Part shown: in pieces, positions 12,079 to 15,546 of the stretch
Layout of the letters: each line of letters starts with the position of its first letter
Numbering within the stretch: position 1 is the stretch's first letter
DNA from: Solirubrobacterales bacterium
GTDB lineage: Bacteria > Actinomycetota > Thermoleophilia > Solirubrobacterales > 70-9
Reading direction: 5' to 3'
NCBI GenBank assembly: GCA_019456285.1
Contig: VRUE01000018.1
Location: 1-33,086, forward strand
Length of the DNA: 33,086 nt
Notes under the pieces: generated by a model
Told to the model about the DNA's origin: nothing
Databases searched by the model: none
What the model saw: only the letters and a program-made list of their open reading frames with translations
Made by a program: the position numbers and the translations under genes

Positions 12079-12097
12079 TGGGAAGATGGGGAACCCG

Positions 12098-12343
12098 ATG
12101 ACCCGCGACGAAGTCCTCGCCCTGGTCCGCGACCACCTCGCCGAGGAGCTCGAGGTCGACGCTGCGCAGATCGGCGAGCAGACCCGCCTCAAGGAGGATC
12201 TCGACGCCGACTCCCTGGACCTGTACGAGCTGGTGATGGAGCTGGAGGACCGCTACGGGATCTCGGTCTCCGAGGAGCAGGCGGCGCGGATCGAGACGGT
12301 CGGCGACGCGGTCGCATTCGTCCTGGAGCACGCTCCGGCGTGA
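12098..12343 (+). CDS. acpP: Acyl carrier protein
   Basis: An 81-residue acidic four-helix carrier. The phosphopantetheine attachment serine is in DADSLDLYELVMELEDRYG, the DSL motif. It carries growing acyl chains in fatty-acid synthesis and supplies substrate to PlsX, encoded just upstream. Start chosen at ATG 12098 (MTRDEVLALV), which has GGGGA 5 nt upstream; an in-frame ATG at 12086 would add MGNP with no usable spacing. The stop overlaps the GTG of rnc by 4 nt. Confidence 0.93.
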   Translation: MTRDEVLALVRDHLAEELEVDAAQIGEQTRLKEDLDADSLDLYELVMELEDRYGISVSEEQAARIETVGDAVAFVLEHAPA

Positions 12344-13017
12344 GCGTCGCGGCGCTCGCGGCGCTGGTCGGGGACCTCCCCGGCGGCCTGCGGCGCCAGG
12401 CCCTCACCCATTCCTCCTGGACCGAGGACCGGCTGGAGTCCTTCGAGCGCCTCGCCTACCTCGGCGACAGCGTGCTCGCGCTCGCCGTCGCGTCCGATCT
12501 GTACAGGCGCTTCCCGGAGGTCGACGCCGGCGGCCTCACCAAGATCCACAACCAGGCGGTCAGCGGCGCCTCCTGCACCGAGGTCGGCCGCCTGCTCGGC
12601 GTGCCGGAGATGCTGCAGGCGGCCGAGCCGGACGGCGAGCTGGCGATCCCCGCCGGGATCCTGCTCAGCGGCGCCCGGCCGCTGCCCGAGGTGACCGAGG
12701 CGCTGATCGGCGCCTGCCACCTCGCCTTCGGCTTCGAGCCCGCCGCGGCCGCGGTCAGCGCCGCGTTCGAGCCGCAGATCGAGTGGGCGGCTGAGCACCC
12801 GATCGACTTCAAGTCCGCGCTGCAGGAGCTGCTCGCGCGTCACAAGGCGCGGGTAAGCTACGACGTGATCGCCGAGTCCGGCCCGGCGCACCGGCGCACC
12901 TTCGAGGTGGCGGCGGTCGTCGACTCCGAGCGGGTCGGGAAGGGGATCGGCCGAAGCAAGAAGGCTGCCGAGCAGGCGGCGGCCGAGCAGGCGCTGAAGC
13001 GGCTCGGGGACAGCTAA
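12340..13017 (+). CDS. rnc: Ribonuclease III with atypical active site
   Basis: RNase III cleaves double-stranded RNA in rRNA precursors and other transcripts. The 225-residue protein has an RNase III domain (ALTHSSW, then ERLAYLGDSVL, then TEALIG) and a full C-terminal dsRNA-binding domain (DFKSALQELLARHK to KKAAEQAAAEQALKRL). Compared with E. coli numbering, E38, D45 and E117 are kept. E41 is Ala (ERLAYLGD for ERLEFLGD), E65 is Ala (VDAGG for VDEGD) and D114 is Glu (PEVTEALIG for ADTVEALIG). Mg coordination may thus be altered. GTG start overlapping acpP. The gene often found between rnc and smc (mutM) is absent. Confidence 0.9.
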   Translation: MSVAALAALVGDLPGGLRRQALTHSSWTEDRLESFERLAYLGDSVLALAVASDLYRRFPEVDAGGLTKIHNQAVSGASCTEVGRLLGVPEMLQAAEPDGELAIPAGILLSGARPLPEVTEALIGACHLAFGFEPAAAAVSAAFEPQIEWAAEHPIDFKSALQELLARHKARVSYDVIAESGPAHRRTFEVAAVVDSERVGKGIGRSKKAAEQAAAEQALKRLGDS

Positions 13018-13140: not shown

Positions 13141-15546
13141 ATGTATCTGAGATCGATCGAGCTGAAGGGGTTCAAGTCGTTCCCCGAGCGGGCGAAGCTG
13201 GAGTTCTCGCCCGGCGTCAGCGTGATCGTCGGCCCCAACGGCTCGGGCAAGTCGAACATCACCGACGCGGTGCTCTGGGCGCTGGGCGAGCAGAGCCCCA
13301 CCGCGATCCGCGGCGCCTCGATGCAGGACGTGATCTCGGCCGGCGGCAAGGGCGTCGGGCAGCGCCGCGCCGCGGAAGTCGAGGTCGTGATCGACAACTC
13401 CGAGGGCCGCGCCGCCTCCGAGCTCTCCGAGATCTCCGTGCGGCGCCGCCTCGACCGCTCCGGCGAGGGGACCTACCGGCTGAACGGCGCTCGCTGCCGC
13501 CTCGTCGACGTGCTCGAGGTCCTCTCCGACGCCAACCTGGGGCGCGAGATGCACTCCGTGATCAGCCAGGGCCGGATCGAGTCGATCGTCCACTCGAACC
13601 CGCGCGAGCGGCGGCTGTTGATCGAGGAGGCGGCGGGGCTGGGCAAGCACCGCAAGCGCCGCCGCCGCGCCGAGCTGAAGCTGCACGCGACGCGCGACAA
13701 CCTCGATCGGGCGCTCGACCTGGAGCGCGAGGCGCGGGCCCGGCTGCGGCCGCTGAAGCGCCAGGCGCAGGCAGCCGAGCTGGGGGCGCGGATCGAGCGC
13801 GAGGAGCTGGGGCTGCGCGGTCGGCTCGTTGCCGAGGAGCTGCGCTTTGACGAGGACCGCGCCCAGCTCGCCGAGCGGGCAGCCGAGCGGGCACGGGCGG
13901 CGCGGGCCGAGGTCGAGCGGCGCCTCGCCGAGGTGAGCGAGCGGCGGCGAGCCGCCGAGGAGCGCTTCGCCGCCCGCGACCGCGAGCGCACCCGGGCATG
14001 GGGCCTGCTGACCAAGCTGGGCGGCGAGCAGCAGCGGATCGCGGTGCGCGCCGCAGGCCTCGCCGATCGCGAGGGCGAGCTGGCGGCGGGCCTGGAGGCG
14101 CTGCGCGCCGAGCTGGGCCCGCTGACCCTGGGCGTCGGCGCGGGAAGCGCCTCGGCCGAGCGGGCCCGCAAGCTCGAGGAGGAGCTGGGCGAGATCGAGG
14201 CCGGCCTCTCCGGGGCGTCCGACGGCCTCGCCCGCGCCCGTTCGGCTGAGGCCGCCGAGCCGGCGTGCGAGAAGGCGCTGGGGGCGGTGCGAAGCGGCGC
14301 CGAGCGGGCCTCCCGGCACGCCCGCCGGGCGGAGGGGCTGCTCGGCGAGCGCCACCGCGAGGCGCTGCGCAGGCGGGTGGCCGCCGGTGAGGAGCTGCTG
14401 GAGGAGGTGCGCGCCGCCGCCGCCGCGGTGACCGCGGTCGAGGCGGCGATCCGCGCCCGGGTCGAGCGAGCCGAGGGTAGGGTGGTCGGCGGCGACGGCG
14501 ATGGCGACGAGATCGCCGAGGAGATGCGCGCCTGCTCGCAGCGTGAGTCCGAGCTGCAGGTGGAGATGAAGGCCGCATCCGACAAGCTGACCGAGGCGGA
14601 GGTCGAAGCCGCCCACCGCGGCGACCGCCGCGCCGAGGCGGCCAAGGAGCTGGCCTCGATCGCCGCGCGCCTCGGCGAGGAGATCGGCCCGGCCGAGCAG
14701 CCGCTGAGCGAGGAGGAGCGCACCGGGATCGACCGCCGGCTGGAGCGGCTGGAGCGCCGCCGCGCCCAGATCGGCCCGGTCAACCCGCTCGCCGGGCAGG
14801 AGTACGAGGAGGCGCGCGAGCACGTCGAGTCGCTGCGGATCCAGCGCCAGGACACCGAGCGCGGGATGCGCGAGCTGGAGGCGCTGATCCGCGAGATCGA
14901 GCGCGAGATCGAGCGCGCCTTCGAGCAGGCCTTCGAGGCGACCGCCAAGAACTTCGAGGAGATGATCGAGCACCTCTTCCCGGGCGGGCGCGGGCGGCTG
15001 CGCCGCATCAGCCTGCGGCCCGTCCGCGACGCCGAGGAGGCGGGCGGCGAGGACTCGGACGAGGAGGACGAGGAGCGCGAGGAGCTCGGGGTCGAGATCG
15101 AGGTCACTCCGGCCGGCAAGTCGACCCGGAGGCTCTCACTGCTCTCCGGCGGTGAGAAGTCGCTGGTCGCGCTGGCCTTCGTCTTCGCCGTCTTCCTCGC
15201 CCGCCCCTGTCCCTTCTACATCCTCGACGAGGTCGAGGCGGCGCTCGACGACGCCAACATCGATCGCTTCCTGCAGCTGATCCGCCGCTTCTCCAGCCGC
15301 GCCCAGTTCGTGATCGTCACCCACCAGAAACGGACGATGGACGCCGCTGACGTGCTCTACGGCATCAGCATGGGCGGCGACGGGGTCACCAAGGTCGTAT
15401 CCCGCCGCCTCCCCCGCGAGGTGGAGGCCGCCGAGGAGGGCCCGCCGCCCTTCGCGGGGATCGCGGCCGGCGACGAGGACGCAGACCCGCAGGCCGCCGC
15501 AGCCCCCGGCGGGGTGGCGGCGCCGGGATCGGCCGAGGCCGCGTAG
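13141..15546 (+). CDS. smc: Short, apparently hinge-less SMC chromosome segregation ATPase
   Basis: The N-terminal head has MYLRSIELKGFKSF and Walker A GPNGSGKSN at residues 31-39. The C-terminal head has the ABC signature LSLLSGGEK near 665 and Walker B FYILDEVEAALDD near 690-705. SMC dimers compact and segregate chromosomes. This one has only 801 residues against about 1,150-1,200 normally. The segment between heads (about 170-600) is Glu/Arg/Ala coiled coil throughout; I see no globular hinge and no YExAxExALG motif. An acidic insert (EDSDEEDEEREE) precedes the signature, and the tail is Ala/Pro-rich. The frame is continuous and followed by ftsY as usual. GAGGA at 13128-13132 is the likely ribosome site. 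Confidence 0.88.
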   Translation: MYLRSIELKGFKSFPERAKLEFSPGVSVIVGPNGSGKSNITDAVLWALGEQSPTAIRGASMQDVISAGGKGVGQRRAAEVEVVIDNSEGRAASELSEISVRRRLDRSGEGTYRLNGARCRLVDVLEVLSDANLGREMHSVISQGRIESIVHSNPRERRLLIEEAAGLGKHRKRRRRAELKLHATRDNLDRALDLEREARARLRPLKRQAQAAELGARIEREELGLRGRLVAEELRFDEDRAQLAERAAERARAARAEVERRLAEVSERRRAAEERFAARDRERTRAWGLLTKLGGEQQRIAVRAAGLADREGELAAGLEALRAELGPLTLGVGAGSASAERARKLEEELGEIEAGLSGASDGLARARSAEAAEPACEKALGAVRSGAERASRHARRAEGLLGERHREALRRRVAAGEELLEEVRAAAAAVTAVEAAIRARVERAEGRVVGGDGDGDEIAEEMRACSQRESELQVEMKAASDKLTEAEVEAAHRGDRRAEAAKELASIAARLGEEIGPAEQPLSEEERTGIDRRLERLERRRAQIGPVNPLAGQEYEEAREHVESLRIQRQDTERGMRELEALIREIEREIERAFEQAFEATAKNFEEMIEHLFPGGRGRLRRISLRPVRDAEEAGGEDSDEEDEEREELGVEIEVTPAGKSTRRLSLLSGGEKSLVALAFVFAVFLARPCPFYILDEVEAALDDANIDRFLQLIRRFSSRAQFVIVTHQKRTMDAADVLYGISMGGDGVTKVVSRRLPREVEAAEEGPPPFAGIAAGDEDADPQAAAAPGGVAAPGSAEAA

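What the first reader, a model, noticed from the sequence alone, without database searches (positions are those of the whole stretch)
12340..13017. RNase III with altered catalytic residues
The signature ERLEFLGD reads ERLAYLGD, so E41 (E. coli numbering) is Ala. E65 is Ala and D114 is Glu, while E38, D45 and E117 and the dsRNA-binding domain are intact. E41 and D114 help coordinate the catalytic Mg ions in studied enzymes. The protein could be slow, metal-shifted, or a dsRNA binder with reduced cleavage. It is the only rnc visible and sits in the normal locus.
Basis: partly seen in the sequence, partly recalled or inferred. Interest (0 to 1): 0.62.

Follow-up and report, generated by a model that had tools for sequence, protein, structure and literature searches.

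The report
Order-wide RNase III with rebuilt active site
A whole order of soil bacteria carries, as its only RNase III, an enzyme that has lost a glutamate normally used to hold a catalytic magnesium ion and has gained an arginine at the spot where Dicer-type enzymes keep a catalytic lysine, so either RNA cutting works with a different metal chemistry there or the protein has become a dsRNA binder.

Summary
ORF 12340-13017 is the only RNase III found in this genome, in its usual place (plsX-acpP-rnc-smc). E41 is Ala, E65 Ala, D114 Glu; E38, D45, E117 and the dsRBD are intact. It is not a private mutation: E41A is in 115 of 115 sequences of its order (Solirubrobacterales), in 0 of 74 other class sequences and 0 of 64 other bacteria, and needs one change on the tree. 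D45 and E117 never vary. D114 was already lost in most other families of the class. The order also gained a basic residue at E. coli position 110 (window R113; 113 of 115), the site of the catalytic lysine of Dicer and Rnt1, and it carries two or all three substitutions of the engineered 'bacterial Dicer' (E38A/E65A/Q165A). No second RNase III appears in 91 of 91 order genomes with a match. The gene is under purifying selection and 23S rRNA flanks still form long stems. Best reading: a working RNase III whose metal-A site is weakened and partly replaced by arginine. The main rival is a non-cleaving dsRNA binder. Nothing here measured activity.

The parts
12340..13017 (+). rnc, RNase III-like protein, 225 aa, GTG start overlapping the acpP stop
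   Evidence: PF14622, PF00636, PF00035 above gathering; TIGR02191 152 bits, below its 166.25 cut-off
12445..12468 (+). signature motif ERLAYLGD (E36-D43); A39 = E. coli E41, D43 = E. coli D45
   Evidence: E41A 115/115 order, D45 115/115
12526..12528 (+). A63 = E. coli E65
12565..12567 (+). G76 = E. coli 78; Arg in most other families of the class
12676..12678 (+). R113 = E. coli S110 = position of the eukaryotic catalytic lysine (four residues before D114)
12688..12699 (+). E117 (= E. coli D114) to E120 (= E. coli E117, invariant)
12811..13005 (+). dsRNA-binding domain (residues 158-222), with A166 = E. coli Q165
12086..12343 (+). acpP, upstream neighbour (normal locus)
13141..15546 (+). smc, downstream neighbour (normal locus; short form, see Noticed in passing)

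Best explanation
This is the sole RNase III of Solirubrobacterales, still a dsRNA-cleaving dimer, but with a rebuilt catalytic valley. The metal-B ligands D45 and E117 are kept. The metal-A ligand E41 is gone, so metal A is held by E117 alone (in the window's clade perhaps helped by Glu at 114) or is absent, and Arg at position 110 takes over part of its charge-stabilising work, as Lys does at the same position in Dicer. Loss of E65, often E38, and of Q165 lowers the negative charge of the valley and the sequence preference, favouring tight, less specific dsRNA binding. Shown: residue states, their order-wide fixation, one origin of E41A, lack of a second copy, fold by prediction, purifying selection, retained 23S stems. 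Inferred: that it cleaves, the dimer, the metal count, and the roles of R113 and E117.
For: E41A 115/115 in the order with D45 and E117 invariant, one change on the tree; basic residue at 110 in 113/115, the position of Eh K112, KpDcr1 K217, Rnt1 K313 and human Dicer K1806, said to stabilise the phosphorane; mutational table: E41A, D114A and E65A keep weak activity in excess Mg in vitro while E117A/K/Q are dead; exactly one PF00636 hit in each of 91 matching order genomes of 101; median dN/dS 0.25 (310 pairs); 23S flank stems in 11 of 11 order genomes (10 at 0/200 shuffles, one at 2/200) including the window's own, with compensatory changes; AF2 pLDDT 96.3 with E. coli and A. aeolicus RNase III on top.
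Against: No activity data. E65A alone abolishes activity in vivo in E. coli. Arg110 is not tied to E41 loss alone: three class sequences with E41 intact also have it, and the link between loss of 114 and a basic residue at 78/110 is not significant once relatedness is controlled. dN/dS is somewhat higher than in the rest of the class (0.25 against 0.19; 0.30-0.45 for the window's own pairs). 16S stems stand out in only 6 of 11 order genomes. Stems can be kept for rRNA folding, and the invariance of D45/E117 could reflect a salt bridge with Arg.
Confidence: 0.55

Rival explanations
1. Order-wide pseudo-RNase III: the protein no longer cleaves; Arg113 neutralises D43 and E120 in place of metal, and the protein acts as a dsRNA-binding or rRNA-stem chaperone while other RNases process rRNA.
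For: Loss of E41, E65, often E38, and D114; the valley falls from 6 acidic positions to 2-4; non-cleaving RNase III relatives exist, such as mL44 (fold match; its inactivity is recalled) and trypanosome KREPB proteins (listing and abstracts).
Against: D45 and E117 invariant in 115/115 across an order; single E41A mutant of E. coli keeps weak activity; it is the only RNase III and 23S stems persist.
Confidence: 0.25
2. Ordinary two-metal RNase III: the substitutions are tolerated because water, E117 and in this clade Glu at 114 complete the shell of metal A, so kinetics and metal need are near normal.
For: D114 does not ligate Mg directly in the E. coli complex; Glu at 114 in 33/115 order sequences could reach metal A; D114 varies elsewhere in bacteria (10/64 outgroup).
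Against: E41 is invariant in 138/138 sequences outside the order that cover it, and E41A gives weak activity only in excess Mg in E. coli; 82/115 order sequences have neither E41 nor an acid at 114.
Confidence: 0.15
3. Artefact: sequencing or assembly error, or misalignment of the active site.
For: The genome is fragmented (146 contigs).
Against: Same E41 state in 115 genomes, several of them single-contig assemblies.
Confidence: 0.01

Closest known systems
E. coli / A. aeolicus / M. tuberculosis RNase III (class I)
   Same: RIIID plus dsRBD, 225 aa, single rnc, D45 and E117; AF2 model best matches 2nug, 7r97, 2a11
   Different: E41, E65, E100 and the G97-E100 loop gone; D114 is E or S; Arg at 110; Q165 is Ala
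EcEEQ, the engineered 'bacterial Dicer' E38A/E65A/Q165A (PMC9291653, passages)
   Same: E65A plus Q165A in the window; the exact A/A/A triple in 7 of 115 order sequences
   Different: EcEEQ keeps E41 and D114; here it is natural and combined with E41A
Eukaryotic RNase III (Dicer, Rnt1p, KpDcr1)
   Same: Basic residue four positions before the D114 equivalent (Lys there, Arg here)
   Different: They keep the acidic quartet and an Asn; overall the window protein is a bacterial class I type
RNase III of other families of the same class
   Same: D114 mostly lost, Q165 mostly Ala, same loop changes
   Different: E41 and E65 kept; Arg usually at 78, not 110 (three exceptions)
mL44 / KREPB pseudo-RNase III proteins
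   Same: RNase III fold with a degenerate site (recalled for mL44; abstracts for KREPB)
   Different: Fold match only for mL44; their residue states were not compared here

Membership tests
Bacterial class I RNase III | RNase III domain followed by C-terminal dsRBD | tested here: met
   PF14622 59.7, PF00636 47.6, PF00035 65 bits, all above gathering
Bacterial class I RNase III | NCBIfam equivalog TIGR02191 above curated cut-off | tested here: not met
   152 against 166.25 bits; 115 of 299 class genomes pass it
Bacterial class I RNase III | catalytic quartet E41, D45, D114, E117 | tested here: not met
   A, D, E, E
Bacterial class I RNase III | RNase III fold | tested here: met
   AF2 pLDDT 96.3; 2nug Z 19.1 rmsd 3.3 over 207, 7r97 Z 19.0 rmsd 3.5 over 212
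Bacterial class I RNase III | usual locus and single copy | tested here: met
   plsX-acpP-rnc-smc-ftsY; one PF00636 match in the genome
Bacterial class I RNase III | metal-dependent dsRNA cleavage | not testable with these tools
   needs purified protein
Eukaryotic-type RNase III active site (quartet plus Asn and Lys) | basic residue at the Lys position | tested here: met
   R113; 113/115 in the order, position from PMC5357909 and PMC13334501
Eukaryotic-type RNase III active site (quartet plus Asn and Lys) | full acidic quartet and Asn | tested here: not met
   E41A and D114E; position 78 is Gly; the match of 78 to the Asn is by offset, inferred
Pseudo-RNase III (non-cleaving) | loss of cleavage | not testable with these tools
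   D45 and E117 retained in 115/115 speaks against but does not decide

The most novel reading that the evidence does not exclude
A natural RNase III lineage that cuts with one firmly bound Mg per site: metal A was given up with E41 (after D114), its work passed to an arginine at the Dicer-lysine position, and the valley was stripped of charge as in the engineered bacterial Dicer, giving unspecific dicing of dsRNA in a whole bacterial order.
Probability: 0.27. Interest if true: 0.78.

Novelty: new variant of a known kind. Interest (0 to 1): 0.58.

Why it matters
RNase III is the textbook two-metal dsRNA nuclease. An order in which a metal ligand that is invariant elsewhere in my samples has been Ala since the common ancestor, with an arginine placed where Dicer keeps a catalytic lysine, is a natural experiment on whether the second metal and E41 are needed and on what the eukaryotic lysine does. 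It would also warn that automatic 'ribonuclease III' labels in this order rest on an altered site.

Tried and rejected
A sequencing or assembly artefact was rejected because the same E41 state recurs in 115 genomes. A second rnc was looked for and not found: PF00636 in the own genome and in the order (91 of 101 genomes with a match, one each; 10 had none, all but one of them under 90% complete). The weak second match in G148 (E 1e-3) was not followed.

A replacement acidic residue in the metal site was sought by column statistics. The only acid gained next to the 110-117 stretch is at E. coli position 109 (0.88 of the order), which the window itself lacks (A112). Glu at 114 is the only candidate in the window's own clade.

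The idea that Arg110 arose to pay for E41 loss was weakened: class sequences L276, L278 and L282 have Arg110 with E41 intact. A test of 114 loss against basic 78/110 was significant without control for relatedness (Fisher p 1e-16) but not with it (independent pairs, median p 1).

A first rRNA-stem script (duplex folding of whole flanks) was noisy and ran into its time limit; it was replaced by a local complementarity search. In one search the row of G157 is probably out of register and G017 was not anchored; both were left as they fell.

The motif search over the phylum was narrow because E38 varies; 4 of 396 genomes matched, two of them order members' rnc, the other two (L262, L263) not RNase III. 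Paper searches: searches found no paper; the listings showed nothing on this order or on a natural bacterial RNase III lacking E41. The absence claim rests on those searches only.

Full report
Observation. The ORF at 12340-13017 (+) encodes 225 aa with an RNase III domain and a dsRNA-binding domain, all three Pfam models above gathering. NCBIfam's RNase III equivalog gives 152 bits, under its 166.25 cut-off. Its neighbours are plsX, acpP, smc and ftsY, the usual locus. The genome (G000, 2.11 Mb in 146 contigs, 92.5% complete) holds one PF00636 match.

Extent. I aligned E. coli, the window and 239 fetched loci (L001 and L032, which are the window itself, were dropped). The order set is the window plus 114 loci (L033-L146), 115 of the 138 genomes with a match among 151 searched. 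The class set is 45 loci: 30 of them the best-scoring to the family model and so biased to canonical residues, 15 picked from the list. Four loci (L176-L179) were added by sequence similarity, giving 49. To offset the bias I fetched low-scoring class genomes (27 genomes, 28 loci). The outgroup is 63 loci from many phyla plus E. coli. The order is named from record titles of near-identical loci: 'Solirubrobacterales' in L163, L164, L168 and L175; 12 of 13 named loci L163-L175 share their protein core with my order set.

Residue states. E41 is Ala in 115 of 115 order sequences. It is Glu in 49 of 49 class sequences, in 25 of 25 further class loci that cover the position (3 fragments do not), and in 64 of 64 outgroup sequences. 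D45 and E117 are unchanged in all that cover them. E65 is lost in 114 of 115 order sequences, and E38 is variable. D114 is Ser in most of the order and Glu in 33 of 115, and in the class mostly Ala; it also varies in 10 of 64 outgroup sequences. Q165 (E. coli) is Ala in 95% of the order and 84% of the class and Gln in 90% of the outgroup. Of the six acidic valley positions, order members keep 2 to 4, class and outgroup members 5 or 6. No two order proteins are identical.

A gained arginine. E. coli position 110 (window R113), four residues before the D114 equivalent, is R, K or H in 113 of 115 order sequences (exceptions L128, L129, both with Arg at 78), in 0 of 49 class and 0 of 64 outgroup sequences, and in 3 further class loci, L276, L278 and L282, which keep E41. 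This is the position of the catalytic lysine of eukaryotic RNase III: Entamoeba K112 with D116/E119, KpDcr1 K217 (hydrogen bond to the nucleophilic water), Rnt1 K313 (to the 5'-phosphate) (PMC5357909, passages), and human Dicer K1806 with D1810/E1813 (PMC13334501, abstract and passages). In most other class families an arginine sits instead at 78, which by offset is the eukaryotic Asn position (human Dicer D1709/N1742; inferred).

History. On a tree of 91 proteins built without the six variable active-site columns, the order is one side of a branch (SH-aLRT 98); E41 needs 1 change, basic 110 needs 2, 65 needs 3, and 114 and 78 need 9 each. On a wider tree of 119 proteins E41 again needs 1 change and basic 110 needs 4. 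So E41 was lost once, at or before the ancestor of the order; that D114 began to vary earlier is inferred from its loss in most class families. A link of 114 loss with a basic residue at 78 or 110 looks strong in raw counts but fails the test that controls for relatedness.

Is the protein still working? For: median dN/dS 0.25 over 310 order pairs (class 0.19, 32 pairs), 0.30-0.45 for the window's pairs (simple Nei-Gojobori, crude at this G+C). PF00636 hits exactly once in each of 91 order genomes with a match, of 101, so no spare RNase III is seen. The flanks of 23S rRNA form long stems in all 11 order genomes in which I tested an operon, the window's own included (score 88 against a shuffle maximum of 53, 0 of 200); one genome (G160) was reached by 2 of 200 shuffles, the others by none. 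The three sister genomes and E. coli rrnB also do. Over 10 of the 11 order genomes the stem keeps 79% pairing against 71% when partners are shuffled (0 of 2000), with 14 columns showing double changes against 9.2 (2 of 2000). Against or neutral: 16S stems stand out (at most 5 of 200) in 6 of 11 order genomes and not in the other 5, and stems may be kept for rRNA folding.

Structure. AF2 with a 68-row alignment gives mean pLDDT 96.3. The best solved matches are A. aeolicus 2nug (Z 19.1, rmsd 3.3 over 207) and E. coli 7r97 (Z 19.0, rmsd 3.5 over 212), then the M. tuberculosis nuclease domain; Rnt1, Dicer, Drosha and mL44 follow.

Mechanism. In the E. coli postcleavage complex MgA is held by E41 and E117, MgB by D45 and E117, and D114 touches no Mg (PMC9291653, passages). 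E. coli E41A, D114A and E65A keep weak activity in excess Mg in vitro, E65A none in vivo, E117A/K/Q none (PMC8708148, table and passages). The order therefore keeps the MgB pair and loses half of the MgA pair. I read this as an enzyme with a weak or absent MgA whose charge is partly supplied by Arg at 110, as proposed for Dicer's lysine, and in the window's clade perhaps by Glu at 114. Loss of E65, Q165 and in part E38 copies the engineered 'bacterial Dicer' EcEEQ, in which the changes stabilise the protein-RNA complex and remove the +3 G preference; 7 of 115 order sequences have the exact A/A/A triple. The simple alternative, Arg salt-bridged to D45 and E117 in a metal-free dsRNA binder, is not excluded.

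Verdict. A real, order-wide variant of class I RNase III. It fails two defining tests of the canonical enzyme (full quartet, equivalog cut-off) and passes fold, architecture, locus and single-copy tests. I found no paper on it in the held library. Interest is moderate to good because a simple biochemical test would decide between a novel metal chemistry and a bacterial pseudo-RNase III.

Noticed in passing
window 13141-15546 (+), smc: The SMC protein next to rnc is only 801 aa and has no SMC_hinge match; the own genome has no PF06470 hit, nor do 8 of 12 tested genomes of its family (own included), while 26 of 29 of the other families of the order have it. Named relatives L163, L165, L167 and L168 have frames of 814-842 aa there. 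A hinge-less SMC lineage would be worth its own look.
   Followed up: partly
class-wide rnc, E. coli positions 96-107 and 114: In this class the G97-E100 loop and D114 of RNase III are lost in most families although E41 is kept; D114 is also N, A, S or C in 10 of 64 other bacteria.
   Followed up: partly
L276, L278, L282 (rnc): Three class members outside the order have Arg at position 110 and no Arg at 78, with E41 intact: the arginine seems to swap between the two positions.
   Followed up: no
L279, L280, L281, L283, L155, L156 (rnc): Some class members read RDELLGD or RYE(F/L)LGD in the signature, with D114 kept.
   Followed up: no
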